Source of the DNA: Thermaerobacter sp. PB12/4term
Lineage (GTDB): Bacteria > Bacillota > Sulfobacillia > Thermaerobacterales > Thermaerobacteraceae
Assembly: GCF_003403315.2 (NCBI RefSeq)
Contig: NZ_CP048407.1
Span: forward strand, 2,294,001 to 2,358,000
Reading direction: 5' to 3'
DNA: 64,000 nucleotides
Below the pieces are notes generated by a model, which saw nothing but the letters and a program-made list of their open reading frames with translations, did not search any database and was not told the origin of the DNA. A program made the position numbers and the translations under genes. Of this stretch, positions 147 to 64,000 are shown piece by piece; position 1 is the first letter of the stretch; each line of letters starts with the position of its first letter.

Positions 147-1286
147 GTGGTCCGTAAGCCGCGGGTGACCGGCGAGTTCGTCCGCGTCGACGAGCGGCTC
201 TACCGCCTTCCGGGCGTCTTCGCCCGGTTCGACGGCCTGGTGGCCGCATTCCTCCACGGCAGTTACAGCACCGCGCACCAGACGCCCCTGAGCGACGTGG
301 ACCTGGCCGTGGTCTACCGGGCGGAGCGGCTTCCGGACCTCCGGGAACTCGTGGACCTCCAGGGTGCCGTGGAAGACGCCCTGGACCTCGAAGACGGGTT
401 CGTCACCGTCCTCAACCGGACGCCTTTGCCCTTTCGGTTCCGCGTCCTGGCCAACGGCCGACTGCTCTACGTCACCGATCCCGTGGCCCTGGCGGACTTC
501 CGGGAGCGCGTGTGCAAGCTCTACGGGGATTTCGCCCCCGACTACCGGCGCCTGGCGCTGGACTACGACCGGGCACTCAAGGAGGCCTACGCCCCGATGG
601 TCGAGATAGCGCCTCCCGGTCCCTCAGGCGGTCCCGTTGATTCCGGCGACCAGCGGACCACGGACGCCGACGAGGCGCCGGTTACCCCCTATTCTCCTGC
701 CGGTCTCCCGCGTTCCGATGCCGCGGGTTCCGGCTCTGCAGGTTCCGGCAACCCCGGACCGGCGGACGAACCCGGCCGGCCGACGGCAGGCCCGCGCCGG
801 GACGGCCCCGAGGGCGTGCCGGAAACGCGGCCGACAATGAACGGCGAGCCCCCAACCACCCCGTTGGGCGTCATCGACCGGGAGAAGGTACGGGATAAGC
901 TCGACTTCATTCGGAGGAACCTGGTGCACCTCGAGGCCCTCGCCCGGCGCGGGCCCGCGGCCTTGCGCGACGACAAGATCGCCGAGGCCGCGGCCGTCCA
1001 TATGCTACAGACCTCCATCGAGGCGATGATCGACGTGGCCAACCACGTGGTGGCCCGCCTGGGGCTGGGTGTTCCCAGGTCGTACCGCGAAGCCTTCGAC
1101 CTGCTGGTGCAGGCCGGGATCTTCCCCGCGCAGCACCGGGCCGCCTTCCACCGGATGGTCCGCTTCCGCAATCGCGCGGTGCACCTGTGCGACCGGATCT
1201 CGCCCGAAGAGGTTCATGCGATCCTGGCCCGTCCCATGGGGGACTTCGACCTGTGCATTGGAGCCGTGGTCCGCCGGTTCTTCTAA
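147..1286 (+). CDS. Fused MNT nucleotidyltransferase-HepT (MntA-HepT type) protein
   Basis: Single 379-residue chain joining two modules that are normally separate genes of a toxin-antitoxin pair. Residues 30-130 form a minimal nucleotidyltransferase with GSYS (38-41) and the metal pair D50/D52. Residues 240-379 are an all-helical HepT-like RNase domain with the motif RNRAVH at 341-346. In known MntA/HepT pairs MntA adenylylates a tyrosine two residues after that histidine in HepT; here the position is Cys348, so this route looks unavailable. A Pro/Gly/Arg-rich linker (about 170-235) separates the modules. The GTG start follows GGGAGG. It stands alone, with no partner toxin or antitoxin next to it. 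Family call is firm; activity as a TA system is inference. Confidence 0.82.
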   Translation: MVRKPRVTGEFVRVDERLYRLPGVFARFDGLVAAFLHGSYSTAHQTPLSDVDLAVVYRAERLPDLRELVDLQGAVEDALDLEDGFVTVLNRTPLPFRFRVLANGRLLYVTDPVALADFRERVCKLYGDFAPDYRRLALDYDRALKEAYAPMVEIAPPGPSGGPVDSGDQRTTDADEAPVTPYSPAGLPRSDAAGSGSAGSGNPGPADEPGRPTAGPRRDGPEGVPETRPTMNGEPPTTPLGVIDREKVRDKLDFIRRNLVHLEALARRGPAALRDDKIAEAAAVHMLQTSIEAMIDVANHVVARLGLGVPRSYREAFDLLVQAGIFPAQHRAAFHRMVRFRNRAVHLCDRISPEEVHAILARPMGDFDLCIGAVVRRFF

Positions 1287-1335
1287 CCCTTTGTCTCCTT
1301 GTGTTTTTGTCTCTTTGTCTTTCCCTCTGGTTGGG

Positions 1336-2016
1336 TCATTGACTGCTTCCGTTCGGCTCGAGGGCGAAGGTCACCTCGACCTCGGCGCTGATGTCGTGCT
1401 GGCCGGGGGTGATGGGCGCCGAAGGTGCGTCCCCGGGTTCCGCCGCGTACACCGCGTAGGAATCGCGGTAGCTGTAGCGGCCCCCGCGCCGGCCCAAGTG
1501 CAGGTTCATCTGCACGGGCGGGCCGAGCCGGACCCCAGCCGCTCGGGCGGCCACCTCGGCGCGTTCCCGGGCGTGCCGGACGGCATGCTCGAGGGCCTGG
1601 AGCTCGAGTTCCCGTACGTCCGAGATCTCAAAGGCCCACAAGGTCGCCTCGCTGGCCCCTACCGCCAGGGCGCGGCCGAGCAGCTTGCCTGCCAACTCGA
1701 AGTCCCGCACCCGGGCTTCCAGGACGTACCGGACCTCGTGTTCGATCAGGCGCCGGCGACCTTGGCGATCGGTGTGGTGACGGGTGCTGGTTTCGATGTC
1801 CACGGTCCGCAGGGCGTCGTCGGCGAGCCCCTCTTCCCGCAGGGCGGCGATGACCTGCTGCGCGGCATCGACCGCCGCCCGGTAGGCCGCCATGTGGTTC
1901 GTGGGATGCGTCCTGTAGACGTAGAACCGCAAGACCGCCACGTCGGGCGTGACCGAGACCCTTCCGTAGCCGGTGGCGAAGAGGGTAGGTTGGCGGGATT
2001 CAGCATCCGGCGGCAT
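1336..2016 (-). CDS. SIMPL domain (DUF541, YggE-like) protein
   Basis: 226 residues. Opens with the family signature GYGRVSVTPDVAVLRF near residues 16-31, followed by the alternating helix/strand pattern of SIMPL proteins and a C-terminal strand segment typical of the second half. Most YggE-like proteins are exported, but no signal peptide is visible here, so it is probably cytosolic. Start at ATG 2016 was chosen because GGAGGG lies 9 bases upstream; a longer frame exists but lacks a ribosome site. Family members are linked to stress tolerance, with no biochemical role settled. It is convergent with the MNT-HepT gene. Confidence 0.8.
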   Translation of the reverse strand: MPPDAESRQPTLFATGYGRVSVTPDVAVLRFYVYRTHPTNHMAAYRAAVDAAQQVIAALREEGLADDALRTVDIETSTRHHTDRQGRRRLIEHEVRYVLEARVRDFELAGKLLGRALAVGASEATLWAFEISDVRELELQALEHAVRHARERAEVAARAAGVRLGPPVQMNLHLGRRGGRYSYRDSYAVYAAEPGDAPSAPITPGQHDISAEVEVTFALEPNGSSQ

Positions 2017-2180: not shown

Positions 2181-2430
2181 CTACCCCTTGTCAACGAGCC
2201 GGGTGGACTCCAGCACCTCCAGCGCCTTCTCCGCATGACGGCTCGGCGGGATCCCCCGGATCACCTCGAGCACCCGCCCGTCCGGGCCGATCACGAAGGT
2301 CACCCGGTCCACGAGGGGGACGAACCGGCCGATGACGGGCAAGTCCCGCCGCACCCCGTACGCGGCGGCCAGGCGCCGGTCGGGGTCCGAAATGAGCCGG
2401 AAAGGAGCATGCCCAGGGAACAGGCTTCAT
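2181..2430 (-). pseudogene. Peroxiredoxin (Bcp/AhpC-TSA type) C-terminal remnant
   Basis: Reading the minus strand from about 2415 down to the TAG at 2181-2183 gives roughly 77 residues beginning HAPFRLISDPDRRLAAAYGV and continuing through a VTFVIGPDGRVLEVIRG segment, the second half of a peroxiredoxin. The N-terminal half with the peroxidatic cysteine is missing: an in-frame TGA lies about six codons upstream, and the sequence then becomes the end of the neighbouring MFS gene. A deletion has evidently removed the front of the gene. One GGACGAACC copy lies inside (2318). Confidence 0.75.
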
Positions 2431-4073: not shown

Positions 4074-4841
4074 TCATCCGCCCTGCCCCTTGAGCCGCCC
4101 CAGCAACCCCTCGAGGTCCGCCCATCCGTACCCCCACTCCTCCAGGTCCACTCCACCGATCGCGATGGTCCGGGTGCGGACGTGAGTGCCACCCAGGGAC
4201 TCGTAGAAACGCCGGTAAGGGTTTTGGGCCAGTACCCACACCAGCATCGACCGATGACCGCGGGCCAGCAGCTCCCGGACGGCCGCCGCCACCAGCCGCC
4301 GGCCTACGCCGCGCCGCTGGTACTCCTCAAGCACGTAGATGGCGCCCAGCTCCCCGCGAAACTCGGGGTCCCTCGACCGCTCCGGGCCGGCGGCGGCGAA
4401 GCCCACCACCCGCTCCGGCGTTTCCACCGGAGCGTCTCCCTTCCGCGCCAAGGGGCGGACCGCTCCCACCGGGTGTTTCGCCACCGGCCGGCGTTCCGCA
4501 TCCGGTGCGATCCCTTCCTGGTGCGCACCCGTCCCGCCTGCCCGGAATTCGTCGCCGGAGGCACCACCACCGGCCTCCCGGCCCGGGCCGCCCCCGTCGC
4601 CGACCCCAGCATCGCCGCCAAGGGTCACCCCGTCCACCGCCACCACCACGAAGGACGAACCGGCATCTCCCGCATCGCGGGCGATGACGTCCTGCCACCA
4701 CCGGGCCCGAGGTTCCTCCTCCATGGCGTCGAGGTACGCGTCGGGGATCAGCTCCCGGTAGGTGCTGCGCCACGTGGCCACCTGCACCCGGGCGATCCCG
4801 GCCGCATCGGCCGGCATCGCCCGGCGAATCTCGATGCCCAT
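4074..4841 (-). CDS. GNAT family N-acetyltransferase with internal low-complexity insert
   Basis: 255 residues. N-terminal strand and helix IEIRRAMPADAAGIARVQ and the acetyl-CoA binding segment QRRGVGRRL (motif A) identify a GCN5-related acetyltransferase; the region from GELGAIYVLEEY through FYESLGG is the standard C-terminal half. Between the third strand (FVVVAVDG, about 67-74) and the next core strand (VVGFAAAG) sits a 65-residue Gly/Ala/Arg-rich insertion (about 75-142) with no counterpart in the family. ATG 4841 was chosen because the fold begins immediately after it. The acceptor substrate is unknown. One GGACGAACC copy (4653) encodes part of this gene. Confidence 0.8.
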   Translation of the reverse strand: MGIEIRRAMPADAAGIARVQVATWRSTYRELIPDAYLDAMEEEPRARWWQDVIARDAGDAGSSFVVVAVDGVTLGGDAGVGDGGGPGREAGGGASGDEFRAGGTGAHQEGIAPDAERRPVAKHPVGAVRPLARKGDAPVETPERVVGFAAAGPERSRDPEFRGELGAIYVLEEYQRRGVGRRLVAAAVRELLARGHRSMLVWVLAQNPYRRFYESLGGTHVRTRTIAIGGVDLEEWGYGWADLEGLLGRLKGQGG

Positions 4842-5673: not shown

Positions 5674-7431
5674 TCACGACCCGCGCGGATCGTAGCCCAC
5701 CACCGTCCAGATGCCCGTCTCGTCCTGGCGCACACGGCGCTCGAGGTACACCCGCGCGACCGGGCCGACCTGGACCTCCACCACGGCCCGCCTGCCGTCG
5801 TTGTGGACGACGCGGATGTGCCGGTCGACCAGGGCTCCGGGGCCGCCCATCTGCTCGCCGAACCGCCCGAGGAGGAAGGCGCCCGCCACCTGGACGGGAT
5901 CCAGCATCCACGGGGAGTGACCGGCGTCCACCTGCTGCTGCGAACCGCGTTCCACCTCCATGTCGACGGAGACCTCGACCTCGGGGTCGAAGCCGGTTCC
6001 GACGCCGGGATCCCGGTTCGGATCGGGGAGCTGGATGTCCAGTGCCAGGGCCCGGGCCAGTTCCACCCGCCGCGGCCCCTCGACGGTGATCTCGAGCCCC
6101 TGCTGGCGCCAGCGCAGCCGCGCGCCGAACACCTCGAGCAGGCCGTCCTGGCCGGCGGAGCCGAGAGCGGCGTTCGGCTGGGGCTCGAACGGGCCCTGGG
6201 CCGGTTCTTCCACAATCACCGTCTCACCGTAATCCAGGACCACCCGGTCCCGAGCCGCCAAGATCCGGCGGGGCGCCTCGTCCGGCAGCAGCGGGGTGAA
6301 GCCGGCGATGGCCGCCGCCTCCGCGGGCGTGTCCACCAGCTGCCCGGGGTTCTCCTCCTCCACGCGGTAGCCCGCCGGCACGTGGAAGCGAAAGCGGGAC
6401 GGGTCGACCGCCACATTGGCCTCGAACCGGACGAAAGTGGTCTCGGTCTGGATCCCGTTCTGCATCGCCGTCCGCAGGCGCAGGGGCAGGTGGGACTCGG
6501 CGTCGACCCAGAGGTCGTAGGGCAGCCCGCCCGGCGGTTCGATGCGCAGCCGGATCACCTCGCGTCCCGCGACCTGCTCGTGGCCCACCACCCGGTGGGG
6601 GTAGCGCAGGGCGGCGCGCGCCTCGTCCTCCAGGTCGAAGGGGCGCACGTCGGGCAGCGGGGGCAGCACCGCCACCACCCGATCGGCGGGACGAACCTGC
6701 CACTTGCGCCGGCCGTCGTGCACCGTGACCACGCCCGTGTCGTCGCGCGTCACGTAGCGGTCGCCGTCGACCCAGATCTCGATCCGGCGGACCAGCCAGG
6801 TCTCGCCGGCGGCGTTGGTGGTGCGCTTCTCGAGAACCGCGTGGTAGCTGTGGAGCTGGGCGACGGCCCGCTCCATGGCGTGGACCACGTCGGTCTCCGG
6901 CGCCGGTCCGAGCCCCAGCTGCGCCCGGAGCCACCCGCCGAGGCCGGGGATCCCGGGCCACGGCGCGAAGACCGCCGCCAGCGCCAGCCCGGCGACCAGG
7001 GCCGCCGCGGCAATCCCCACGCGCCGCCGGCGGCTACGCGTCCAAGCGCCCTCCCGCTCCCTGGCCCGGGTGTCGTCCTGTTCCTTGGCGCCAAGGGCGC
7101 CGGCACCCTCCCCCTCCCCGGCGCCGGCGAGGCGCCGCTCCTTGGCGCCGGCGTCGAGGGCGTGGAGGGCGTCAAGGGCGCCGATTGCCTCGAGCCCTCT
7201 TCCGGCGGCGACCAGCGGCCTCCACCCCTCCGCCGGCTCCGGCACGCCGCGCAGGCTCTTCAGCATGCGGGCCACCGCCAGGAGCTCCGCCTCCTCGGGC
7301 TCCGCCGGCGCCGGGGGACGACGCTCCTCGTTCAGGGCGTCGATCATCCGGTCGAGCCGCTCCTCGCGGAGGGCCCGCAAGCGACGCCGGTTCCAGTCGC
7401 GCCAGGAAGCCATCGGGCCCTTCCCTTCCAT
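5674..7431 (-). CDS. Membrane-anchored anti-sigma-like protein with LolA/RseB-type extracytoplasmic domain
   Basis: 585 residues. A cytoplasmic N-terminus (1-135, with Arg-rich helices and a Gly/Ala-rich patch) precedes one transmembrane segment (about 138-157) and a large extracytoplasmic part. Residues 180-350 have the beta-rich pattern of the LolA/RseB/MucB fold (VEKRTTN-like opening, a WVDGDRYV strand and a LPYDLWVDAESHLPLRLR strand), followed by a second beta domain. Its ATG shares one base with the sigma factor stop, so the two are translationally coupled. Such partners usually hold an ECF sigma factor inactive until an envelope signal arrives; that role is inferred from order and topology, since no classical zinc anti-sigma HxxxCxxC motif is visible. 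Confidence 0.72.
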   Translation of the reverse strand: MEGKGPMASWRDWNRRRLRALREERLDRMIDALNEERRPPAPAEPEEAELLAVARMLKSLRGVPEPAEGWRPLVAAGRGLEAIGALDALHALDAGAKERRLAGAGEGEGAGALGAKEQDDTRAREREGAWTRSRRRRVGIAAAALVAGLALAAVFAPWPGIPGLGGWLRAQLGLGPAPETDVVHAMERAVAQLHSYHAVLEKRTTNAAGETWLVRRIEIWVDGDRYVTRDDTGVVTVHDGRRKWQVRPADRVVAVLPPLPDVRPFDLEDEARAALRYPHRVVGHEQVAGREVIRLRIEPPGGLPYDLWVDAESHLPLRLRTAMQNGIQTETTFVRFEANVAVDPSRFRFHVPAGYRVEEENPGQLVDTPAEAAAIAGFTPLLPDEAPRRILAARDRVVLDYGETVIVEEPAQGPFEPQPNAALGSAGQDGLLEVFGARLRWRQQGLEITVEGPRRVELARALALDIQLPDPNRDPGVGTGFDPEVEVSVDMEVERGSQQQVDAGHSPWMLDPVQVAGAFLLGRFGEQMGGPGALVDRHIRVVHNDGRRAVVEVQVGPVARVYLERRVRQDETGIWTVVGYDPRGS

Positions 7432-8093: not shown

Positions 8094-8495
8094 CCCTGCA
8101 CCTGCTTTCCCAACCGTGGCCTTGGGGAGGCACCTCCAAAGGGTAGAACGCGGGGACACGGGGGACGTCACGCGGCGGGACTGGAAAGATGCGGGAGGTG
8201 ACGGGTGGCGAGGCGGGTGTGCGTTCCCTGCCGCCCGCCGGGAACCGCGGGATCGCGGGGCGAACATCGCACCGATGGCCGCTGCCGCGACAGCGCAAGC
8301 CCCCCTTGCCTGGCTGCGACGCGGTCCGGTGACCGCCGTCTTCGCAGGGGGCGTGGTTCGGCGACGCCCTCGGCGAACACGGCAAGGAGCGGCCGGCGGT
8401 GGCGCCCGGCGCCGGGTTCGTCCGCATCAGACCCCCGGCCTGCGGTGCACGCCGGGGAGGCGGGAAGGGGACCGCCGCCCCCCTCCCCAAGACCT
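8094..8495. other. Intergenic region upstream of the sigma factor, no gene seen
   Basis: About 400 bases between the ends of the TetR gene and the sigma gene. No convincing frame on either strand. It should contain the sigma operon promoter, but no clear consensus was found. One GGACGAACC copy on the minus strand (8415-8423) lies outside any gene. Confidence 0.5.
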
Positions 8496-9578: not shown

Positions 9579-9601
9579 GGACGAACCCCCGTCTAGCCCT
9601 T

Positions 9602-10420
9602 TCAGGAGAAGTCCTTCCGCTCGAGGATCATCGTACCGGCCAGCGAGCCCACCAGGAAGACCGCGACCAGGACGAGCAGGCCGCCCACGTCGGGATCCCC
9701 CGCCGCCGCCCGGTCGAGGGCGGCGTAGCGCTGCAGGCTGAGGTAGCCGATGGGGCGCAGCCGGTCGGCGAGCTGACTCAAGGCGTGGAGGACGAAGGAG
9801 GCCAGCCCGACGCCGACCCCGGCGGAGATGGCCGTCTGGGCCCGGGGGAAGAAGGGCGCGAGGACGAACCCGGCGCCGCCGGCAGCCAGGGTAGCGCAGA
9901 ACCCCGCCAGGTGCGTCCACCGCTGGCGCCCGAGGTCGTAGGCGTCGCCGGCCACCGCCCATCCCACCAGCGTGCTGACGGCCAGGATCGCCACCCAGAG
10001 GACCACCGCCGCCACGACGAAGGCGGCGATCTTGGCGACCGTCACCTGACGCCGGGTCACGGGTCGAGTGTAGAGGAACTCCACCGCCCCCAGGTCCGGT
10101 TCGCGGGCCACGCTGCCGCCCGCATGCATCAGGCCGTAGATGGTCGCCAGGAGCACCAGGTAACCCATGATGTACACGCCGTAGTAGCTGTTGACGTCGG
10201 CGATCATCGCCGGGGTGAAGCTGAAGGCCTTGAGCAGGCTCTCGGGCATAGCCTTGAGCGCTTCCACCATCACCGGCTCCTGGATGGACTCGAACAGGCT
10301 CAGGTAGAGCGCGACGACGCCGACCAGGACGGCGGTCCAGATCAGCAGCGCGCGACGCGCCAGGCGCAGCTCCATCCGGGCCACGTGAAGGATCATCCCC
10401 AGGGAGCTACGGCCGTTCAT
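9602..10420 (-). CDS. ABC transporter permease (ABC-2 type)
   Basis: 272 residues with six hydrophobic segments and the ABC-2 features of a large loop after TM1 and the cytoplasmic EFLYTRPVTRRQVTVAK stretch (about 113-129) that in this family contacts the ATPase. ATG 10420 follows GGAGG and overlaps the ATPase stop by 14 bases, so the pair is coupled. Drug or lipid export is typical, but the substrate cannot be read. Ends 23 bases before tetR. Confidence 0.83.
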   Translation of the reverse strand: MNGRSSLGMILHVARMELRLARRALLIWTAVLVGVVALYLSLFESIQEPVMVEALKAMPESLLKAFSFTPAMIADVNSYYGVYIMGYLVLLATIYGLMHAGGSVAREPDLGAVEFLYTRPVTRRQVTVAKIAAFVVAAVVLWVAILAVSTLVGWAVAGDAYDLGRQRWTHLAGFCATLAAGGAGFVLAPFFPRAQTAISAGVGVGLASFVLHALSQLADRLRPIGYLSLQRYAALDRAAAGDPDVGGLLVLVAVFLVGSLAGTMILERKDFS

Positions 10421-11366
10421 CCCGTCGTCCTCCCATCGTGGCCGTCGGGGCACCATCTGGTTCGCCGTTCCCCGACCGGTAGAGGGTGAGGAACACGTCC
10501 TCGATGCCCGGCTCGGCGATGTTCAGATCCTCGAACGCCAGCGGGGCGAGGGCGGCCACCAGCTCCTGCACCGGCGCCCGCACCAGGACACGGTACGTGC
10601 CCGGCTTGCCGGGCACCGGCTCGGGCCGCGGGTCGCCCAAGCGGGCCAGCAGCTCACCCGGCAGCGGCACACCCCCCGCCAGCCGCAGGGTCACAATCTT
10701 CATGTGCCGCCCGGGCAGATCGTCGACGGGCGCCACTTGCAGCAGGCGGCCGTCGCGGATCATCGCCACCCGGTGGCAGAGCCGGTCGACCTCCTCCAGC
10801 ACGTGGGTGGAGAAGAAGATGGTCGTCCCGCGCGCGTTCACCTCGCGCAGGATCTCGAACAGCTCCGCCCGGATCAGCGGGTCCAGGCCACTGGAGGGGT
10901 CATCCAGGATGAGCAGCCGCGGTCGGTGCAGGAGGGCCTGGACGATGCCCAGCTTCTTGCGGTTGCCCAGGGAGTAGGTGCGGACGGGGCGGGAGAGATC
11001 GAGCTGCAGGCGCTCCACCAGCCGGGCCACCCACCGCCGGTCGACCCTCGGGTAGAACCCGGCGGCGTAGGCCAGGAGCTCCTGGCCCGTCATGTCCGGG
11101 TAGTAGGCGACCTCGCTGGGCAGATAGCCCACCTCGGCCAGCCAGGCGCCGCCGCCCGGCGGCACCGGCTGCCCGAACACGTGCACGCTGCCCGACGTGG
11201 GACGAACCAGCCCCAGCAGCGTGCGGATGGTAGTCGTCTTCCCGGCGCCGTTGGGGCCGATGAAGCCGAAGATCTCGCCCTCTGCCACCTCCAGGTCGAG
11301 GTCCTCGACGCCGCGCGTCCTGCCGTAGTACTTGGTGAGCCCACGGATGGCGATGGCGGCGGGCAT
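10407..11366 (-). CDS. ABC transporter ATP-binding protein
   Basis: 319 residues. Walker A GPNGAGKTTT, Q-loop region, Walker B LLILDDPSSGLDP and switch STH are all present; the signature is the variant SLGNRKKLG rather than LSGGQ, as in many ABC-2 exporter ATPases (CcmA/NatA-like). The last 80 residues form the extra C-terminal domain usual in this group. ATG 11366 has GGAGG ten bases upstream. First gene of the exporter operon, transcribed from the promoter near 11500. Confidence 0.88.
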   Translation of the reverse strand: MPAAIAIRGLTKYYGRTRGVEDLDLEVAEGEIFGFIGPNGAGKTTTIRTLLGLVRPTSGSVHVFGQPVPPGGGAWLAEVGYLPSEVAYYPDMTGQELLAYAAGFYPRVDRRWVARLVERLQLDLSRPVRTYSLGNRKKLGIVQALLHRPRLLILDDPSSGLDPLIRAELFEILREVNARGTTIFFSTHVLEEVDRLCHRVAMIRDGRLLQVAPVDDLPGRHMKIVTLRLAGGVPLPGELLARLGDPRPEPVPGKPGTYRVLVRAPVQELVAALAPLAFEDLNIAEPGIEDVFLTLYRSGNGEPDGAPTATMGGRRDERP

Positions 11367-21165: not shown

Positions 21166-21533
21166 CGCGGGCGTTGCCGGTCATGGATCGCGAGCATCGA
21201 CCTGCCGTCCCCTGGACGCGCCCGCGTGACCGCCCGCGGGCCGCGGGTGTTGGGGACGAACCGACCCGCGGCCGTGGGACGTTGGGATCCCCTCCGCGCG
21301 TCGGGATCCCCTCGCTTGGAGCACGCGAAACCTGGCTGCCCAAGCCCACGCCCCACCGAAGGCCGGTGGCCGCGCTTGGTGGCAGCAGCCCAGTAGACAG
21401 CGGTCCGTCGATGACGTAGGATGAAGGGACTCGTCGCGCGGCCGCCGGCTCGGGGCGAGGGAGATGCGGTGCGGGAAGCACACCGGGAGTCGAGCCCGCC
21501 AGGCCTGCGCTGCAAACGAAAGGACGCCGAGAC
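21166..21533. other. Intergenic region, no gene seen
   Basis: About 370 bases between helicase and desaturase. No convincing frame on either strand; one GGACGAACC copy (21254-21262). A GAAAGGA about eleven bases before 21534 is the only ribosome-site-like element. Confidence 0.5.
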
Positions 21534-43938: not shown

Positions 43939-43980
43939 GGTCCCGCTCCAACGAAGCTTCTGGATCGCTTCCTGGCGCCT

Positions 43981-47987: not shown

Positions 47988-49625
47988 GTGTCCGACCGCC
48001 AGCGAAGCACGAGCACCGCCTCCGGCGCCGGTTCGTCCCGGACGAACGCCTCCACGGGCGGGCTGCCAGAGCCTGGCCATGATGCCCAATCCGGCACCGG
48101 CGGCCGACAGAAGGCTCCCACCGGACCCACCGGTCCGACTGGTCCCGGCGGTCCCGGCAGTGCCGGCGGCTCCTCCACTTCCGCCCGCCCCTTCACTCCC
48201 GCCGGCCCCGCTGGCAGCGCTGGTGCCGCTGGCCGCACCGGTGGCGCGGATCCCCAGGGACAGCGCGTGCTGGGCGTCCTGCTGCTCGGCGTGTTCCTGG
48301 GGGCGCTGGACATCGCCATCGTCGGCCCGGCACTGAGTGCCATCGGCCGGGACTTCGCCATCAGCGAGCGGCAGCTCAGCTGGGTCTTCACCATCTACGT
48401 GCTGTGCAATCTCGTTGGCAACCCGCTGATGGCCCGGCTCTCCGACCTGCGGGGACGGCGGCCGATTTACATGCTGGATGTGGCGCTCTTCGGCCTGGGT
48501 TCGGTGGTGGTCGCCGCCGCACCCTCCTTCCCCGTCCTGCTGGCCGGGCGGGCGATCCAGGGCCTCGCCTCGGGCGGCATTTTCCCCGTGGCCAGTGCGA
48601 CCATCGGCGAGACCTTCCCGCCAGAGCGTCGCGGCCGTGCCCTGGGGATGACGGGCGCCATGTTCGGGCTGGCCTTTTTGCTGGGGCCCGTGATCGGCGG
48701 CGTGCTGTTGCCCTTTGGCTGGCAGTGGCTCTTTTTGATCAACGTACCCCTGGCCGCTCTGGTGCTGGTCTGGAGCCGCCGGGTTCTTCCGGCGCCGCGG
48801 CCGGCGGCTCGGTCCGCCTTTGACCTGCCCGGCATGGTCCTGCTGGGGTTGGGTCTTGTGGCCCTGGCCCTGGCCATCAACCGCATTGACAGCCAGCAGG
48901 TTTTGGCGAGCCTCACTTCGCCAGGGGTGTGGCCCCTTTTGCTGGCTGGGCTCGTGCTGCTCGCCGCCTTCCAGCGGGTGGAGGCCACCGCCCCCGCGCC
49001 GCTTATCGACCCCGGCCTGTTGGCCAATCGCCAGCTGGCCGTGGCCAACGCCCTCTCCGGCCTGAGCGGCCTGCTCCAGGCGGGGCTGGTCTTCGTCCCC
49101 TCCCTGGCCGTCGCCGCCTTTGGGGTGGACCCCTCCACGGCCGCCTACCTGCTTGGCCCGGCGGTGCTGGCCAGTGCCGTGGGGGCGCCGCTGGTGGGCC
49201 GCCTGCTGGACCAGGCCGGCTCCCGGGTGGTCCTTTCAGCCGGAACGGCGGTGCTGGCCGCCGGGCTGCTCCTGATCCCCCTGGCCACCCGGAACGTGGG
49301 GCTGTTCGTGGCGGACGGCGTCGTGGTAGGCCTCGGCCTGGCCAGCCTGACGGGCGCTCCCCTGCGGTATGTGGTTCTGAACGAAGCCGGGGCCGGCCAC
49401 CGGGCGGCCGCCCAGTCCCTGCTCACCGTGGCCAGCAACATGGGCCAGATCGTGGGCAGCGCCGCCATGGGCGCCATCGTGGCCTCCCACGCCGGCGACC
49501 TGGCGGGGTACGAGCAGGCGTACGTGGTGCTGGGCGTGCTGGCGGCCCTGGGCGTCCTGGCTGCCCTTTCCTTGAAGAACCGGGAGGAAGAGCGCCGCAC
49601 GGCGCTGAAAAACAGCCCTGCTTGA
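47988..49625 (+). CDS. MFS drug exporter, DHA2 (EmrB/QacA) family
   Basis: 545 residues with about fourteen hydrophobic segments. LGALDIAIVGPALSAIGRDF (TM1 motif D1-like), ARLSDLRGRRPIYMLDV (motif A) and LGPVIGGVLLPFGWQWLFLI (motif C) are clear. The first 90 residues are a polar Ser/Thr/Gly/Pro leader with collagen-like GPT triplets (APTGPTGPTGPGGPG), absent from relatives. GTG 47988 follows CAGGAG by about ten bases. Substrate unknown. Confidence 0.88.
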   Translation: MSDRQRSTSTASGAGSSRTNASTGGLPEPGHDAQSGTGGRQKAPTGPTGPTGPGGPGSAGGSSTSARPFTPAGPAGSAGAAGRTGGADPQGQRVLGVLLLGVFLGALDIAIVGPALSAIGRDFAISERQLSWVFTIYVLCNLVGNPLMARLSDLRGRRPIYMLDVALFGLGSVVVAAAPSFPVLLAGRAIQGLASGGIFPVASATIGETFPPERRGRALGMTGAMFGLAFLLGPVIGGVLLPFGWQWLFLINVPLAALVLVWSRRVLPAPRPAARSAFDLPGMVLLGLGLVALALAINRIDSQQVLASLTSPGVWPLLLAGLVLLAAFQRVEATAPAPLIDPGLLANRQLAVANALSGLSGLLQAGLVFVPSLAVAAFGVDPSTAAYLLGPAVLASAVGAPLVGRLLDQAGSRVVLSAGTAVLAAGLLLIPLATRNVGLFVADGVVVGLGLASLTGAPLRYVVLNEAGAGHRAAAQSLLTVASNMGQIVGSAAMGAIVASHAGDLAGYEQAYVVLGVLAALGVLAALSLKNREEERRTALKNSPA

Positions 49626-52509: not shown

Positions 52510-53778
52510 TTATCCGGCTGTCCCTGCGCTCTCTTCGGCCGGTTCGTCCGCCACCGTGTCGCCCGGTGCGGTCGCCAGCGATCCTGCCAGCGGCCGGCGC
52601 GCTGCGCCCGGCAGGGCCACACGGCCGCCGTCGGACAACCGGAACAGATGGAGGCGCGACACCGGCAGCCGGACGCCCACCGCCTCCCCTTCGACCACCG
52701 CCGCGTCGGCCGGCACCAGGGCCTGCAGGCGCACGGTCCCCCGCGCAGCGCCCCGGTCGCCGGACGTTCCCGAGGCCCTGGCCGCCCCGCCCGCCGCGTC
52801 GCCCCCCGATCCGGCCACCGCCACCCCGGCCGTTCCCGGCGCCGCCCGGCCCGCCTCCACGGTGACCAGCTTCTCGTGCCCGAGGAGCTCGATCATGGTC
52901 ACGGCGCCGTCCAGGTGCCCGCGCCCCGGCGCCACCAGCTGCACGTGGTGCGGCCGGATACCGATCTCCACCTCGCCGTCCCGCGCCGCCGCCGGCAGCG
53001 GCAGGTACACGGGGAGGCCGTCCACCTGCAGGCGCGTGCCGCTCACCCGGCCCTGGAGCCAGTTCATGGGCGGGTGGCCGATGAAGGAAGCGGTGAAGCG
53101 GTTGGGCGGCGTCTGGTAGAGCTCGTACGGCGTGCCCTGGGCGACGCAGCGGCCGGCGTTCATCAGCACGACCCAGTCGGCGATGGTCATCGCCTCGGTC
53201 TGGTCGTGGGTGACCAGCACCGCGGTCACGCCCAGCTCCCGCTGGATGCGGCGGATCTCGGCGCGCATGGCCTGGCGCAGCTGGGCGTCCAGGTTGGACA
53301 GGGGTTCATCCAGCAAGAGCAGGGCCGGCCGCTTGACCAGGGCGCGGGCCAGCGCCACCCGCTGCTGCTGGCCGCCCGAGAGCTGTTCCGGCCGCCGGTC
53401 CAGCAGCGCCTCGACCCGCACCAGCTCCGCCATCTGGCGGACGCGCCGCCGGATCTCGGTCTCCGGCACCCGCTGCATCCGCAGGGGGAAGGCGATGTTC
53501 TCGAACACCGTCATGTGCGGGTAGAGGGCGTAGCTCTGGAAGACCATGCCCACGTTGCGCCGCTGGGGCGGCACGTCGTTGACCCGCACGTCGTCGAAGT
53601 AGATGTCGCCCGCCGTCGGCCGCAGCACGCCGGCCAGCATGTAGAGGGTGGTGGACTTCCCGCAGCCGGACGGCCCCAGCAGCGCCACCAGCCGGCCGGG
53701 CTCCAGGTCCAGGGTCAGGCCGTCGACGGCCGTCACCGCACCGAAGCGCTTGGTCACGCCGTCCAGCCGGATCCTCAC
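52510..53778 (-). CDS. Sugar ABC transporter ATP-binding protein (MsmK/UgpC-like)
   Basis: 422 residues. Walker A GPSGCGKST (35-43), LSGGQQQRVALARAL, LLLLDEPLSNLDAQLR and THDQTEA, then regulatory OB/TOBE domains with IGIRPHHVQL. A Gly/Ala/Ser insert lies in the TOBE part and the C-terminal 30 residues are an acidic/Ala tail. The GTG overlaps the permease stop in a GTGA. Last gene of the importer operon; such ATPases drive uptake of maltose-, glycerol-phosphate- or oligosaccharide-type substrates. Confidence 0.92.
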   Translation of the reverse strand: MRIRLDGVTKRFGAVTAVDGLTLDLEPGRLVALLGPSGCGKSTTLYMLAGVLRPTAGDIYFDDVRVNDVPPQRRNVGMVFQSYALYPHMTVFENIAFPLRMQRVPETEIRRRVRQMAELVRVEALLDRRPEQLSGGQQQRVALARALVKRPALLLLDEPLSNLDAQLRQAMRAEIRRIQRELGVTAVLVTHDQTEAMTIADWVVLMNAGRCVAQGTPYELYQTPPNRFTASFIGHPPMNWLQGRVSGTRLQVDGLPVYLPLPAAARDGEVEIGIRPHHVQLVAPGRGHLDGAVTMIELLGHEKLVTVEAGRAAPGTAGVAVAGSGGDAAGGAARASGTSGDRGAARGTVRLQALVPADAAVVEGEAVGVRLPVSRLHLFRLSDGGRVALPGAARRPLAGSLATAPGDTVADEPAEESAGTAG

Positions 53779-54611: not shown

Positions 54612-54929
54612 ACCGTCACCTCCTCTCCGACCCCCACCCCGGCAAGCCCGTGGCGTCCCACCGCCGTCCCGTCGTCGTTGCCCAACCCTGGGACCGTGCC
54701 GTCCTCGTGGTACCGGGCGGCGGCGTCCCTCGGCTTCTCGCCGCCACCGGTGCCGCGCGGCGGGCGCCGTACGGTGGGGGACCCGCGGCGTACTGCGCGC
54801 CCTGGCCCCCTCGCCGCCCGGCCGCGCGGGCCGGCCGGACCCGGCCGGGCCAGGACCGGCCCGGCCGGGCTGGTTCGTCCCGAACGGTGAAGCGGCGGGC
54901 GGCTCCCGCGCCGGGCGCTCGGCCGTCCG
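54612..54929. other. Gene-free gap inside the sugar operon
   Basis: 318 bases between the two permease genes with no convincing frame. Contains GGCCGG-rich runs and one reverse GGACGAACC copy (54872-54880). It looks like inserted filler rather than a promoter, although a ribosome site for the downstream permease lies at its low-coordinate end. Confidence 0.5.
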
Positions 54930-55919: not shown

Positions 55920-57382
55920 CGGATGATCACCTCGTCGCGGAGCTGCGCCTGCAGCTGCTTCACCACCGTGTCGACGGCCTGCTCCGGCGTCATCTGCCCG
56001 GCCACCACCGCCGACAGCCCGCGGTAGATGGCCTGGTCGTAGTTGCCGAACTGCGCGTGCAGCGGGACGAACCCGGCGTATTCGACCATGTACGCGAGGT
56101 CGCCCAGCAGCCGGTTCTCCTTGTACTCAGGCTGCTCGAGCTGGGACTTCAGGATCGCCAGGTGGTTGCTCTCCACCGCATGGCGCGTGTTGAACTCGGG
56201 GTTCGTCGCCTCCAGGATCAGCCGCGCCGCCAAGTCGGGGTGCTGGGAGTACTTCGTCACCATGTAGACCAGCGGGTGGGAGAGGGTGACCCCCGGCTTG
56301 CCCTTCTCGCCCGCCGGCAGCAGCGCGTAGCCCAGATCCTGGACATCGGCGTCCGTCAGGCCGTACTGGTCCTGCCACTCGGCCACCTGCCACGAGCCGC
56401 CGACGAACAGGCCCACCTGCTTGCCCGTCACCGTGCGGTGCCAGATGGACCAGTCGGTGCCGAGCAGCGACGGCTTCAGCACGCCCAGTTCCCGCGCCCG
56501 GGCGAAGAACCGGTACTCCTTCAGCAGCGCCTCCTGATCCAGCACCAGCTTCCCCGTCGCCGGGTCCTGCATCCGGCCGTCGTAGGCCAGGTAGAACATG
56601 TAGAAGTCGACGCCCGGCTGCGGCCGGGTCCAGAACCCCTGGCCGGCCGGCACGATGCCGCGGTCCTGGAGCTGCTTGGCGAGATCCAGCAGGTCGTCCA
56701 GGGTGAAGTCGCCGCTCCTGATGCGCTCGGGCAGCTGGGCGATCTGCTGGTCGGTCCAGCCCAGCTGCTTGAGGTGCGACTTCCAGAAGTAAAGGGGCCG
56801 CGCCTCGGTATCCTGCGGGATGCCCCAGATCTTGCCGTCCAGGGTCACGGACTCCCACAGGGTCGGGAACACGTCCCGGTACACCGGGCTGTCCTTGACG
56901 TACTCGTCCAGGGGAACGATGTGCCCGGCCGCCGCCCACGGCGCCACGTCCTCGTGGCCGCTGAGGATGATGTCCGGCGCCTTGCCCGCCTCGGCTGCCA
57001 GGATGAACCGCTGCTTGTACTCGTCCCACGGGCGGTCCTCGTGGGTACCTTCCAGCTGGACGCGGACGTTCGCCCCCTCCTGCTCGAGCTTCTGGTTGAG
57101 GCGCTCCACCGCGTCCTTCAGGTTGTCGAACCGGTAGCGCTCCGTGGGCTTGCCGATGGTCATGGCCCGCAGGGTGACGGTCTGGACCCCCTGCTCCCCG
57201 CCGGACGAACCGGCCCCGCCCGCAGCCTGATCGCCGGCCGCGGGCTGGCCGCCTGAACCGCCGCACCCAGCCAGCACCAGCAGGCCCGCCACCAGGGCCG
57301 CCGCCAGCGCCCGCCGCAAGGCGCGGCTGCGGGCGAGCCGGCCCATGCACCCGATGACGCCATTCGTCCACCGATCCAGCAC
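55916..57382 (-). CDS. Sugar ABC transporter substrate-binding lipoprotein
   Basis: 488 residues. Signal peptide with lipobox VLAGC (C40), a short Gly/Ser linker (41-66) and a two-lobed extracellular solute-binding fold of family 1 (APDIILSGHEDVAPWAAAGHIVPLD; WGIPQDTEARPLYFWKSHLKQLG). A long aromatic-rich pocket (WTRPQPGVDFYMFYLAYDG) suggests an oligosaccharide. GTG 57382 follows GGGAGGTGACC. First gene of the importer operon, which starts at the promoter near 57845-57873. Confidence 0.9.
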   Translation of the reverse strand: MLDRWTNGVIGCMGRLARSRALRRALAAALVAGLLVLAGCGGSGGQPAAGDQAAGGAGSSGGEQGVQTVTLRAMTIGKPTERYRFDNLKDAVERLNQKLEQEGANVRVQLEGTHEDRPWDEYKQRFILAAEAGKAPDIILSGHEDVAPWAAAGHIVPLDEYVKDSPVYRDVFPTLWESVTLDGKIWGIPQDTEARPLYFWKSHLKQLGWTDQQIAQLPERIRSGDFTLDDLLDLAKQLQDRGIVPAGQGFWTRPQPGVDFYMFYLAYDGRMQDPATGKLVLDQEALLKEYRFFARARELGVLKPSLLGTDWSIWHRTVTGKQVGLFVGGSWQVAEWQDQYGLTDADVQDLGYALLPAGEKGKPGVTLSHPLVYMVTKYSQHPDLAARLILEATNPEFNTRHAVESNHLAILKSQLEQPEYKENRLLGDLAYMVEYAGFVPLHAQFGNYDQAIYRGLSAVVAGQMTPEQAVDTVVKQLQAQLRDEVIIR

Positions 57383-57803
57383 GAACGGTCACCTCCCGTC
57401 CCTGTGGACCCGTGGCGCGGCGGGCGGATCCGATCCCGTGGCCTGCAGGCGGCCGTACCTGACCACGGCCGGTGGGACGGTGCCGGCGACGGGCCGGCAA
57501 GTGCGCGCGGCTCCCGCCCGCGGCACGCCCGGGTCTGGCCTTGACCGGTCCCGATCCCCGAACCCGGCCGGCACCGCCCGGCAGGCACCCCCTGCGGACC
57601 GGCACGAACATGCCGGAGGTGCCACCGCTGCCGGCACGGCACGGCCCGCGCGAACCCACCGCTCGCCGGGCCCGCCAGGGGGTTCGGGTTCCCATGCTGG
57701 CAAGCGGGTTCGTCCCTAAAACCCGTGGATGCGACCTCTGTTGTTCCCGTTTCGAGCCTCGTTGGAAGGCGCTTTGAAGGTGACCGGCCCGTTGGGGCCG
57801 GCC
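57383..57803. other. Long untranslated leader of the sugar operon, no gene seen
   Basis: About 420 bases between the operator and the receptor gene. No frame stands out. Contains one reverse GGACGAACC copy (57707-57715) and a GGAGG serving the receptor gene. Possible leader regulation was looked for but no terminator or known riboswitch pattern was seen. Confidence 0.45.
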
Positions 57804-60903: not shown

Positions 60904-60940
60904 TCGTCCTGATGCCCCCTTCCTCCATGGTCGAACTCGG

Positions 60941-60973: not shown

Positions 60974-61010
60974 GGAAGCAGGCGATGGAGCGGTGATTGG
61001 CTCGCCATGC

Positions 61011-61114: not shown

Positions 61115-61288
61115 TCTTTAGGGGTATTCATACCCCACGGCGCCCTACACTCCTTCCCGGGTCTCCGCGAGGCCGGCGGCCTGGCAGGAAATCGGCCTCC
61201 ATCTCACCCACGCGCTTCCAGGTGGCAGGATGCTCCCATCGCGATCTAGAAAGGGGTGGGCAGACCAACGTCGATGGGGGATGCGTCC

Positions 61289-62059: not shown

Positions 62060-62131
62060 GCACATTGCGCATGTGACGCACACTGGGGCCGTACGATGGG
62101 AGCCCATGCCCACCGATAGCAGGAGGCGGAC

Positions 62132-62290: not shown

Positions 62291-63504
62291 GTCTTGGGGA
62301 GGCGTTCCGTGCCGCATGGCAAGGGGTGTGGGCGCACAAGTTCCGTACCTTCCTGACCATGCTGGGGGTGGTCATCGGCGTCGCGGCGGTGATCGCGGTC
62401 GTGGCCATCGGCGACGGCGCTCGCCACCGGATCACCGCCACCCTGCGGGCCGTCGACGCCCAGGCCGTCCAGATCCTCCCCGCAGACTTCGACGAACTGG
62501 GCAATTCCCAGGGGCTTTTGACCGAACAGACCCTGGAGCAGGTGAGCCGCCTCCCCGGGGTGCACGGGGTCGTCACCGCCGACGTGACCGCCGCCACCGC
62601 CCGCTTCCGGGGCGAAGAGGTAGAGCTGACGGTGACGGGCACCACCTTTGCCTACCCGCTGACGGACCCCCTGGAATTCCTCGCCGGGCGGTTCTGGGCC
62701 GAAGCCGACGACCGGGGCGCCCGGCGCGTCATCGTCCTCGACGAGACGGCGGCCGGCCGGCTGTTTCCGGGTGAGGATCCCGCGGCGGTGGTGGGGCAGG
62801 TGATCCGGGTCGACGGCATCCCCTACCGGGTCGCGGGCGTCGTCCGCTCGCAGGTGCCGGCGGCGCTGGCAGGCTTCGTCTCGGCACTAGGGGAAGGATT
62901 ACGGGGTAGCGGCTACGTCCCCCTCTCCACCTGGCCCACCCTGACGGGCCGGTCCCCCGTGGTCGCCTACGTCGCCGTGGTGCCGGAACCGGGCGAGGAT
63001 CGGGACGTCATTGCCCGGCGCACCATCGCCCACCTGGAGCGGGTGACGGGTCAGCGCGGCGCCTTCCGCACCCTGGACCTGTCCGAGCTGGCAGGCGCCA
63101 TCGGCCAGGTGACCGCCCTCTTGACGGTGGTCGTCGGGTCCATCGCCGGGATCGCCCTGGTGGTGGGAGGCGTCGGCGTGATGAACATCATGCTGGTCTC
63201 GGTCACCGAACGCACCCGGGAGATCGGGTTGCGGATGGCCCTGGGGGCCACGCGCGGCAACATTCTTCTTCAGTTCCTCATCGAGGCGATGTTGATCACC
63301 GGGACGGGAGGGCTCGTCGGCATCGGCCTGGGATCCGGACTGGCCTGGGTCATCGCCGCCCTGGCGGGGTGGCCGCCGCGGGTGTCGGTTCCCACCGTGG
63401 TGGTGGCGGTGCTGTTCTCGCTCTTCGTCGGGGTGGTCTGCGGCATCTACCCGGCACGGCGGGCGGCGGGCCTCGACCCCATGGAGGCACTTCGCTATGA
63501 ATAG
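62287..63504 (+). CDS. MacB-like ABC transporter permease
   Basis: 405 residues. N-terminal helix HKFRTFLTMLGVVIGVAAVIAVVAIGDG, a large extracytoplasmic MacB periplasmic core domain (about 50-270), and the C-terminal three helices with GGVGVMNIMLVSVTERTREIGLRMALGATRGNILLQF and YPARRAAGLDPMEALRYE, the FtsX/MacB signature. TTG 62287 follows GGGGAGG. It has no fused ATPase; one is expected beyond the window. Partner of the adaptor protein that overlaps its end by eight bases. Confidence 0.93.
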   Translation: MSLGEAFRAAWQGVWAHKFRTFLTMLGVVIGVAAVIAVVAIGDGARHRITATLRAVDAQAVQILPADFDELGNSQGLLTEQTLEQVSRLPGVHGVVTADVTAATARFRGEEVELTVTGTTFAYPLTDPLEFLAGRFWAEADDRGARRVIVLDETAAGRLFPGEDPAAVVGQVIRVDGIPYRVAGVVRSQVPAALAGFVSALGEGLRGSGYVPLSTWPTLTGRSPVVAYVAVVPEPGEDRDVIARRTIAHLERVTGQRGAFRTLDLSELAGAIGQVTALLTVVVGSIAGIALVVGGVGVMNIMLVSVTERTREIGLRMALGATRGNILLQFLIEAMLITGTGGLVGIGLGSGLAWVIAALAGWPPRVSVPTVVVAVLFSLFVGVVCGIYPARRAAGLDPMEALRYE

Positions 63505-64000
63505 ACGGGTTTGGCGGCTGTTGGTGGTCTATCTGCTGCTGGCGGCGGCAGCGGCAGGCACGGTCGGCGTGGCCATCGCCCGGTCCCGCCATCCAGACGG
63601 CCGTCCCATCCAGGCCGTTCACCCCCAGCGACGCCCCATGGAGGACGTCATCTTCGCCAGCGGCCGCGTCGCCCCCCGCCACCAGCAGAAGGTGCTGCCC
63701 CGGCCGGGGCTAGCGGTCGAGTCGATCCCGGTGGAGGAAGGCCAGACGGTCAAGAAGGGTGACGTCCTGGTCCGGTACGCCGCCGGCGAGCTGGAGGGTC
63801 AGGTGCGCCAGGCCGAACTCGCCCTGCAGCGGGCTCAGCTTGAGCACCGGCGCGCCCGAGGCCAGCTGGAACGAGCCAGGGCATGTGCCCGCGAGAACGG
63901 CAGCCGCGGCGAGGCCGCCCAGGGTCCACGGGACGAACCGGCCCCGCCGGACACCTGCATCGGCAGCGTACCGGAGGAGGAGGCGGAGCTGCAGGTGGAG
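63497..64000 (+). CDS. MacA/HlyD-like membrane fusion protein, cut by window edge
   Basis: 168 residues visible. N-terminal signal anchor (about 8-28), barrel-sandwich start (EDVIFASGRVAPRHQQKVLP), biotinyl-lipoyl-like GLAVESIPVEEGQTVKKGDVLVRY and a coiled coil (VRQAELALQRAQLEHRRARG) identify a periplasmic-adaptor type protein of a MacAB-like efflux pump. Inside the coiled coil a low-complexity stretch with GGACGAACC (63931) begins. ATG 63497 overlaps the macB-like stop by eight bases. Confidence 0.88.
   Translation, partial: MNRRVWRLLVVYLLLAAAAAGTVGVAIARSRHPDGRPIQAVHPQRRPMEDVIFASGRVAPRHQQKVLPRPGLAVESIPVEEGQTVKKGDVLVRYAAGELEGQVRQAELALQRAQLEHRRARGQLERARACARENGSRGEAAQGPRDEPAPPDTCIGSVPEEEAELQVE

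What the first reader, a model, noticed from the sequence alone, without database searches (positions are those of the whole stretch)
764..63939. Dispersed DNA word GGACGAACC, about one copy per 2.4 kb: candidate uptake or Chi-type signal
I count 27 exact copies (16 plus, 11 minus). With about 72% G+C and independent bases roughly one copy is expected over both strands. Copies occur in intergenic DNA (8415, 9579, 17744, 21254, 54872, 57707) and in coding DNA in several frames (DEP, GRT, TN, GFV, GSS, LVRP), often in low-complexity linkers, so the signal is at DNA rather than protein level. The density and 9-base length resemble the uptake sequences of Haemophilus and Neisseria; Chi sites or a regulator or methylase target are alternatives. 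Many copies extend to GGACGAACCGGC. I know of no description of this word in Bacillota.
Basis: partly seen in the sequence, partly recalled or inferred. Interest (0 to 1): 0.88.

Follow-up and report, generated by a model that had tools for sequence, protein, structure and literature searches.

The report
Genome-wide DNA watermark in Thermaerobacter
A bacterium that appears to be a heat-loving Thermaerobacter, together with its closest relatives, carries hundreds of conserved copies of one short DNA word that resembles the self-recognition tags two families of Gram-negative bacteria use when taking up DNA; if experiments confirm that role it would be a first for this branch of life.

Summary
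The word is real and genome-wide. The window holds 28 copies of GGACGAACC (0.9 expected); the 2.82 Mb genome holds 653 (backward control 28), three congeners 650-921, a sister genus 209; 56 other genomes of the order and class hold 4-73. The 12-mer GGACGAACCGGC occurs 280 times here and at most 6 times in any of 295 non-congeneric genomes of a 299-genome phylum draw. Codon choice does not explain it: 180 copies in genes vs 31 after synonymous shuffling. It is as dense between genes as inside them and about 2-fold better conserved between species than flanks or permuted words. It has no replication polarity (105:117), against 45:15 for E. coli Chi counted alike. This genome has a PilT-driven type IV pilus operon and ComEC; the two wordless sister-family genomes have ComEC but only Tad-like pilus hits. 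Best reading: an uptake-sequence-like self-DNA tag, which would be the first outside Neisseriaceae and Pasteurellaceae. Function is inferred, not shown; a word-bearing sister-genus assembly in which I found no pilus or ComEC counts against it. Chi is disfavoured, not excluded.

The parts
764..772 (+). word copy, followed by CGGC; in gene 147-1286 (+), reads ADEP
2318..2326 (+). word copy, followed by GGCC (12-mer form); antisense in gene 2181-2354 (-)
4653..4661 (+). word copy, followed by GGCA (12-mer form); antisense in gene 4074-4841 (-), reads GSS
6689..6697 (+). word copy, followed by TGCC; antisense in gene 5674-7431 (-), reads QVRP
8415..8423 (-). word copy, followed by CGGC; between genes
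9579..9587 (+). word copy, followed by CCCG; between genes
9862..9870 (+). word copy, followed by CGGC; antisense in gene 9602-10420 (-), reads GFVL
11200..11208 (+). word copy, followed by AGCC; antisense in gene 10407-11366 (-), reads LVRP
18469..18477 (+). word copy, followed by CAGG; in gene 18388-21138 (+), reads GRT
21254..21262 (+). word copy, followed by GACC; between genes
25107..25115 (-). word copy, followed by GGCC (12-mer form); antisense in gene 24308-25741 (+)
26649..26657 (-). word copy, followed by CGGC; in gene 25895-28636 (-), reads LDEP
29391..29399 (+). word copy, followed by GGCC (12-mer form); in gene 29305-29973 (+), reads RDEP
29497..29505 (-). word copy, followed by TGGC; antisense in gene 29305-29973 (+), reads GSS
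32078..32086 (-). word copy, followed by GGTC; antisense in gene 31867-32727 (+)
32703..32711 (+). word copy, followed by GGCC (12-mer form); near the 3' end of gene 31867-32727 (+), reads GDEP
38204..38212 (-). word copy, followed by CTAT; in gene 37936-38718 (-), reads LDEP
40945..40953 (-). word copy, followed by GGCT (12-mer form); in gene 39848-41821 (-), reads WTNR
42710..42718 (+). word copy, followed by CGCC; antisense in gene 42024-43295 (-), reads GFVH
44537..44545 (+). word copy, followed by GGCC (12-mer form); in gene 44193-45041 (+), reads LDEP
48030..48038 (-). word copy, followed by GGCG (12-mer form); between genes
52541..52549 (-). word copy, followed by GGCC (12-mer form); near the 3' end of gene 52510-53778 (-), reads ADEP
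54872..54880 (-). word copy, followed by AGCC; between genes
56065..56073 (+). word copy, followed by CGGC; antisense in gene 55916-57382 (-), reads GFVP
57203..57211 (+). word copy, followed by GGCC (12-mer form); antisense in gene 55916-57382 (-), reads GSS
57707..57715 (-). word copy, followed by CGCT; between genes
63931..63939 (+). word copy, followed by GGCC (12-mer form); in gene 63524-64000 (+, cut by the window end), reads RDEP

Best explanation
GGACGAACC, with its 3' extension S-G-S-C (best form GGACGAACCGGC), is a genome-wide self-recognition tag of this genus (Thermaerobacter, by recall) that works like a DNA uptake sequence: a pilin of the PilT-driven type IV pilus binds double-stranded DNA carrying the word in either orientation, the pilus retracts, ComEA and ComEC import a strand, and recombination lets word-bearing alleles replace wordless ones, so the word accumulates where the local sequence tolerates it. 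Shown here: the word, its abundance, strand neutrality, DNA-level enrichment, conservation and restriction (in the genomes searched) to this family; PilT, prepilin peptidase, PilB-like, PilC-like and pilin genes and ComEC in this genome; ComEA beside ComEC in a congener (G003). Inferred: that the word is recognised during uptake, that a pilin is the receptor, and that recombination drives its spread.
For: Abundance: 653 copies in 2.82 Mb, 650, 861 and 921 in three congeners, backward-word control 28, 27, 36 and 31; first among 9-mers with 20 or more copies by third-order Markov z-score in an 864 kb sample, 222 vs 21; 12-mer 99 vs 1.4. DNA level: 180 coding copies vs 31 (largest 43) in 40 synonymous-codon shuffles, all six frames used; intergenic 42 vs 4.6; density 0.262 per kb in genes vs 0.238 between genes, P = 0.62. 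Orientation-neutral: 105 leading vs 117 lagging, 95% interval 0.41-0.54. Maintained: words intact in 20 of 23 (G001), 43 of 61 (G002) and 21 of 32 (G003) aligned sites vs 48%, 31% and 32% for flanking same-phase 9-mers and 50%, 31% and 34% for permuted words, as reported for neisserial DUS (PMC2397512, passages). Less enriched in low-GC bins: 11 vs 2.4 expected (4.5-fold) in 12 bins below 70% GC, 11-12-fold in the other 74. Machinery: pilus operon in L020 with PilT (464 bits, cut-off 319), prepilin peptidase, PilB-like and PilC-like proteins and a pilin over Pfam cut-offs; ComEC in 6 of 7 genomes; ComEA beside ComEC in G003 and G006. N-methyl pilins and PilC of this class were found in 4 of 4 congeners and not in the 2 wordless sister-family genomes. 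The pilins of G000 and G002 match Pfam ComP_DUS over nearly its full length, but below cut-off (24.6 and 23.7 vs 27.3 bits): a lead only.
Against: No uptake or transformation data. The sister-genus genome G004 has 209 copies and AddB, yet ComEC, N-methyl pilins and PilC of the pilus class were not found there; it is a 580-contig, 91% complete assembly, and about 26% of the 68 kb I sampled reads N (from the N count), so the absence is weak but counts against. Density (one per 3.2-4.5 kb) is nearer E. coli Chi (60 in 200 kb) than Haemophilus USS (spacing about 1 kb; PMC7811141, passages). Copies are not enriched between genes, and inverted pairs within 30 bases are few: 10 hairpin-type vs 6.5 expected (P = 0.13) and 12 of the other type (P = 0.035) in four genomes. 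Word density shows no clear trend with local identity, and in G002 comparisons is highest, not lowest, in the most conserved genes. The G003 pilin does not match ComP_DUS; the G001 pilin was not tested. NCBIfam's own PilB, PilC and PilM models score below their cut-offs. No secretin was found in 7 genomes, so uptake would be through a monoderm-like envelope, where I know of no such tag.
Confidence: 0.55

Rival explanations
1. It is a Chi-type site: AddAB stops degrading and loads RecA when it reads the word on one strand, so copies are selected across the genome for break repair.
For: AddB matches in 7 of 7 genomes searched (over the NCBIfam cut-off in 2; ADDB_N and PDDEXK_1 over Pfam cut-offs in G000), including G004, which has the word but no detected pilus or ComEC. 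Density, one per 4.3 kb, is like E. coli Chi (60 in 200 kb). Copies lie in genes at full density.
Against: Chi is read in one direction and is polarised along replication (PMC8022716 and PMC5443536, passages). Here 105 leading vs 117 lagging; E. coli Chi in the same kind of count gives 45 vs 15 (Fisher P = 0.0001). Third-order Markov enrichment is 10.5-fold for the 9-mer and 6.0-fold for its best 8-mer vs 2.1-fold for the E. coli Chi 8-mer. The word extends to 12-13 bases, longer than the 5-8 bases I recall for known Chi sites. AddB is also present in wordless G005 and G006. Not decisive: one study also lists unpolarised candidate motifs.
Confidence: 0.17
2. It is the binding site of an unknown chromosome protein (nucleoid, segregation or another genome-wide role) that needs many copies.
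For: Strict bases (2, 6, 8) beside tolerant ones (3, 4, 9, 10) in the 12-mer, near-random spacing (variance to mean 1.00 in 81 bins above 68% GC) and strand neutrality fit a duplex-binding protein.
Against: No candidate protein was found or sought; FtsK/SpoIIIE guides are polarised by general knowledge and this word is not; there is no excess at the origin (0 copies in the first 20 kb) or terminus in the sampled stretches.
Confidence: 0.2
3. It is a methylation target or HIP1-like methylation-linked repeat.
For: Genome-wide, strand-neutral over-representation limited to one lineage, as for HIP1 in cyanobacteria (recalled).
Against: HIP1 and most over-represented methylase sites are palindromic and 4-8 bases (recalled); this is a non-palindromic 9-13 base word. 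No methylation data and no methylase survey were made.
Confidence: 0.05
4. It is an artefact of composition, codon use or an Asp-Glu-Pro-rich proteome.
For: 85 of 180 coding copies read Asp-Glu-Pro, and synonymous shuffles still give 31 copies, so codon use contributes.
Against: 180 vs 31, intergenic 42 vs 4.6, backward-word control 28 vs 653, conservation about twice that of permuted words.
Confidence: 0.02

Closest known systems
DNA uptake sequence (DUS) of Neisseriaceae
   Same: Many copies of a short non-palindromic word, conserved above its surroundings, family-restricted, in a carrier of a type IV pilus and ComEC (PMC2397512 and PMC12616744, passages).
   Different: Unrelated sequence; mostly inside genes here, mostly between genes in Neisseria; sparser than in Neisseria (their density recalled); hairpin-type pairs not enriched; no ComP match above the family cut-off; no secretin found; uptake untested.
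Uptake signal sequence (USS) of Pasteurellaceae
   Same: 9-base core with a further downstream extension; scarce in acquired segments in Haemophilus, less enriched in low-GC bins here (PMC7811141, passages).
   Different: Extension is G+C-rich, not A+T tracts; about a quarter to a third of the density; few inverted pairs. Five exactly abutting inverted pairs in G002 and G003 recall the -/+ pairs of Haemophilus, but the one read in context lies in a called gene.
Chi sites (RecBCD/AddAB)
   Same: Similar density; AddB present.
   Different: No strand polarity, stronger Markov enrichment, longer consensus.
HIP1 of cyanobacteria (recalled)
   Same: Lineage-specific, genome-wide, DNA-level repeat word.
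   Different: HIP1 is palindromic; this word is not.

Membership tests
DNA uptake sequence (DUS/USS) | Short (9-12 base) word hugely over-represented genome-wide | tested here: met
   653 copies, backward control 28; first 9-mer by third-order Markov z-score
DNA uptake sequence (DUS/USS) | No preferred strand relative to replication | tested here: met
   105 vs 117 of 222 sampled copies; origin from dnaA at base 1, terminus taken as 1.32 Mb from GC skew
DNA uptake sequence (DUS/USS) | Word conserved above its flanks between related species | tested here: met
   43 of 61, 21 of 32 and 20 of 23 intact vs 31%, 32% and 48% of flanks
DNA uptake sequence (DUS/USS) | Word sites lie in more permissive regions | tested here: inconclusive
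   coding identity 12-60 bases from a word 0.844 vs 0.862 at 60-150 in G002, 0.845 vs 0.839 in G003, 0.901 vs 0.904 in G001; 11, 11 and 19 words in rising terciles of gene identity
DNA uptake sequence (DUS/USS) | Inverted pairs used as terminators at gene ends | tested here: not met
   hairpin-type pairs within 30 bases: 10 in four genomes vs 6.5 expected; of six pairs of either type read in context, five overlap called genes. Common in the known cases; I do not take it as defining
DNA uptake sequence (DUS/USS) | Carrier has a retractable type IV pilus and ComEC | tested here: met
   in G000: PilT over cut-off, PilB-like, PilC-like, prepilin peptidase, pilin, ComEC; not found in word-bearing G004
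DNA uptake sequence (DUS/USS) | ComP-family receptor | tested here: inconclusive
   ComP_DUS below cut-off in G000 and G002, no match in G003, G001 not tested
DNA uptake sequence (DUS/USS) | Word raises DNA uptake or transformation | not testable with these tools
   needs a bench assay
Chi site | Leading-strand polarity | tested here: not met
   105 of 222 here vs 45 of 60 for E. coli Chi
Chi site | Cognate RecBCD or AddAB present | tested here: met
   AddB in 7 of 7 genomes, over the NCBIfam cut-off in 2; ADDB_N and PDDEXK_1 over Pfam cut-offs in G000; AddA not searched
Chi site | Word attenuates AddAB in one orientation | not testable with these tools
   needs purified enzyme
FtsK/SpoIIIE guide (KOPS-type) | Strong polarity towards the terminus | tested here: not met
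   105 vs 117
Transcription-factor or terminator element | Concentrated between genes | tested here: not met
   42 of 222 between genes on 176,704 of 864,000 bases, P = 0.62
Methylase target | Modified base in the word | not testable with these tools
   no read data

The most novel reading that the evidence does not exclude
A third, independent origin of a DNA uptake sequence, the first in Bacillota and the first in a carrier with no detected secretin, recognised by a pilin of a PilT-driven pulling pilus, in a 72% G+C thermophile.
Probability: 0.5. Interest if true: 0.92.

Novelty: new variant of a known kind. Interest (0 to 1): 0.82.

Why it matters
[quoted passage not shown] A third convergent case in a distant phylum would suggest that pulling pili readily evolve sequence preference, and would give a new system in which receptor and word can be matched. 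If the function proves to be Chi-like instead, it would be an unusually strong and unpolarised Chi, which also needs explaining.

Tried and rejected
Asp-Glu-Pro or codon-use artefact: rejected by 40 synonymous shuffles and intergenic counts. Composition: rejected by backward-word controls and third-order Markov models; the maximal-order model does not single the word out because its sub-words are enriched too. Chi and KOPS polarity: not found. Terminator-type inverted pairs: not enriched overall. A dialect of the word in the sister family: k-mer ranking of 138 kb (G005) and 133 kb (G006) showed no comparable word; in 68 kb of G004 the same word appears (8 copies), too few to rank. Secretin: none in 7 genomes. 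Recombination-tract enrichment of words: small counts, no trend. Word density by gene identity with G002: 11, 11 and 19 words in rising terciles, against the permissive-site expectation. Structure prediction was not attempted: the pilin lies outside the window, in a locus from a source that tool does not list. Not done: AddA, DprA, ComFA and methylase surveys. Prints: the exact-string search returned 152 papers, 20 of which I saw listed, none on a bacterial genome motif; others (0 papers; 13 of 13 listed; 9 of 9 listed) gave no Bacillota uptake word; some searches listed 20 of 11,708, 10 of 1,275 and 10 of 542, none about it. These are listings; passages were read only in PMC5217627, PMC5031613, PMC12616744, PMC2397512, PMC8022716, PMC5443536 and PMC7811141.

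My note gives the window strands as 17 and 11 and the class background as 4-67; the outputs give 16 and 12 and 4-73, used here. Mended after the filing check: density range, which 12-mer bases are strict, 'depleted' changed to 'less enriched' for low-GC bins, cut-offs of pilus and AddB models, the limits of the paper listings. A filing attempt with wrongly shaped fields was returned and is filed again with the same content.

Full report
What is there. The window holds 28 exact copies of GGACGAACC (16 on +, 12 on -); shuffles give 0.9. The genome, one contig of 2,820,915 bases, holds 324 + 329; the same word read backwards gives 14 + 14. Three congeners have 650, 861 and 921 copies; a sister genus of the family (G004) has 209 (backward control 24). 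The 56 other genomes of the order and class have 4 to 73, with backward controls of 5 to 89; a few stand several-fold above their control (G035 43 vs 5, G039 38 vs 6, G037 55 vs 13), but none comes near the 220-310 copies per Mb of the four congeners. The 12-mer GGACGAACCGGC occurs 280, 274, 429 and 525 times in the four congeners (G000 to G003), 33 times in G004 (control 6), 3 and 3 times in the sister family, and at most 6 times in any of the 295 non-congeneric genomes of a 299-genome draw from the phylum. In the genomes searched, the signal belongs to one family.

Whose genome. G002's contig is 2,844,696 bases long, which I recall as the length of Thermaerobacter marianensis DSM 12885; NCBI places Thermaerobacter in Bacillota. 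The naming rests on that recall.

Anatomy. In a sample of 864 kb (40 stretches of 20 kb spread round the genome, plus the window) the word has 222 copies against 21 from a third-order Markov model and ranks first by z-score among 9-mers with at least 20 copies; the 12-mer has 99 against 1.4. Under the maximal-order model it is not among the eight best listed, because its 8-mers are enriched as well. The consensus runs on 3' as S-G-S-C. After the core, GGCC follows in 196 and CGGC in 99 of 604 copies pooled from the G000, G002 and G003 samples. With the rest of the 12-mer fixed, bases 2, 6 and 8 show little or no excess of substitutions, while base 4 is tolerant (46, 71 and 16 copies vs 3.0, 3.6 and 2.2 expected), as are base 3 as T (44 vs 4.2) and bases 9 and 10. 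That looks like a site read by a protein with some weakly contacted bases, though decayed copies would also add to such variants.

DNA level, not protein level. By a gene caller I wrote (706 genes; its calls at the origin fit dnaA, dnaN, recF, gyrB and gyrA by my reading of the translations), 180 copies lie in genes and 42 between genes, at equal density (0.262 and 0.238 per kb, P = 0.62). All six frames are used; 85 of 180 read Asp-Glu-Pro. Shuffling synonymous codons within each gene leaves 31 on average and 43 at most in 40 rounds. Between genes the Markov expectation is 4.6.

Orientation and spacing. dnaA is at base 1 and GC skew turns near 1.3 Mb. Copies point along the fork in 105 cases and against it in 117 (95% interval 0.41-0.54). 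As a yardstick I counted Chi in four 50 kb stretches of E. coli K-12, replichores assigned from recall: 45 leading, 15 lagging, and 2.1-fold above a third-order Markov model; the best 8-mer inside the present word is 6.0-fold above. Spacing is close to random (variance to mean 1.00 in the 81 of 86 10-kb bins above 68% GC). Low-GC bins are less enriched (11 vs 2.4 expected, against 11-12-fold elsewhere). Inverted pairs within 30 bases number 10 (hairpin type) and 12 (other type) in four genomes against 6.5 each expected.

Maintenance. Aligning congener stretches to the sample (G001 46 kb, G002 210 kb, G003 90 kb aligned), the word is intact in 20 of 23, 43 of 61 and 21 of 32 aligned sites; same-phase 9-mers in the flanks are intact in 48%, 31% and 32%, and permuted words of equal composition in 50%, 31% and 34% (Fisher P from 5e-10 to 2e-4 against the flanks, rough because flank windows overlap). 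The excess holds in the antisense frames; between genes it is 6 of 10 vs 28% in G002, but 1 of 1 in G001 and 0 of 1 in G003. Word density does not trend clearly with local identity and is highest in the most conserved third of genes, so I cannot tell selection from biased recombination.

Machinery. Stretch L020 of this genome carries a type IV pilus operon: PilT (464 bits, cut-off 319), a prepilin peptidase, a PilB-like ATPase with an MshEN domain, a PilC-like protein, a pilin, weaker pilin-like genes and a PilM-like gene. PilB-like, PilC-like, peptidase and pilin pass Pfam cut-offs; the NCBIfam PilB, PilC and PilM models do not pass theirs. N-methyl pilins and PilC hits of this class are found in 4 of 4 congeners; in G004, G005 and G006 only lower-scoring T2SSF pairs, as in Tad systems, were found (the Tad label is my reading). 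ComEC is in all four congeners and in G005 and G006, not found in G004; ComEA stands beside it in G003 and G006. No secretin was found in 7 genomes. The pilin at L020 15379 and its G002 counterpart match Pfam ComP_DUS almost end to end but below its cut-off; the G003 one does not, and the G001 one was not tested. AddB is in 7 of 7.

Reading. Published marks of uptake sequences, from passages I read, are genome-wide abundance, conservation above the surroundings and scarcity in acquired DNA (PMC2397512; PMC7811141). This word has the first two and perhaps the third, with strand neutrality. Published marks of Chi include polarity (PMC8022716; PMC5443536), which it lacks. A PilT-driven pilus in this genome, PilC and pilins of the same class in its congeners, and their not being found in the wordless sister family fit an uptake tag. 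Against this, G004 has the word and AddB but no detected pilus of this class or ComEC; that assembly is in 580 contigs, 91% complete, with many N, so I weigh it lightly. Function is inferred; I put the uptake reading at 0.55, Chi at 0.17, another chromosome protein at 0.2.

Known or new. [quoted passage not shown] My searches showed no report of this word or of an uptake word in Bacillota (listings, several of them capped, and the library holds open-licence papers only). I file it as a new variant of a known kind, with membership unproven.

Noticed in passing
G003:C1:1606373, 1907677, 2428421 and G002:C1:832299, 1034391: The word abuts its own inverse exactly (GGTTCGTCCGGACGAACC), five times in two genomes where about 0.2 are expected over four genomes; the one whose context I could read lies inside a called gene.
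   Followed up: partly
G002 stretches (L072-L075, L080-L087): The base-4 variant GGAGGAACCGGC is itself enriched in G002 (16 vs 0.5 in the 240 kb sample), perhaps a second accepted form of the word.
   Followed up: partly
G000:C1:1-20000 (L009), 840001-860000 (L021), 1890001-1910000 (L036): Three of 41 sampled stretches have no copy: the origin region with dnaA to gyrA, a 57% GC stretch and a 68% GC stretch; the last two may be acquired DNA.
   Followed up: no
window 43839-43948 (+) and 61001-61117 (-): Two TPP riboswitch aptamers (Rfam RF00059, 71.9 and 56.4 bits).
   Followed up: no
G000:C1:1436585-1445534: Two pairs of T2SSF matches, Tad-pilus-like, so this genome seems to carry a second pilus system beside the PilT one.
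   Followed up: no
window against G002: Identity between species is patchy: one G002 stretch is 96.5% identical over 10 kb, the one before it 78.6% over 13.8 kb, which suggests recombination between species.
   Followed up: partly
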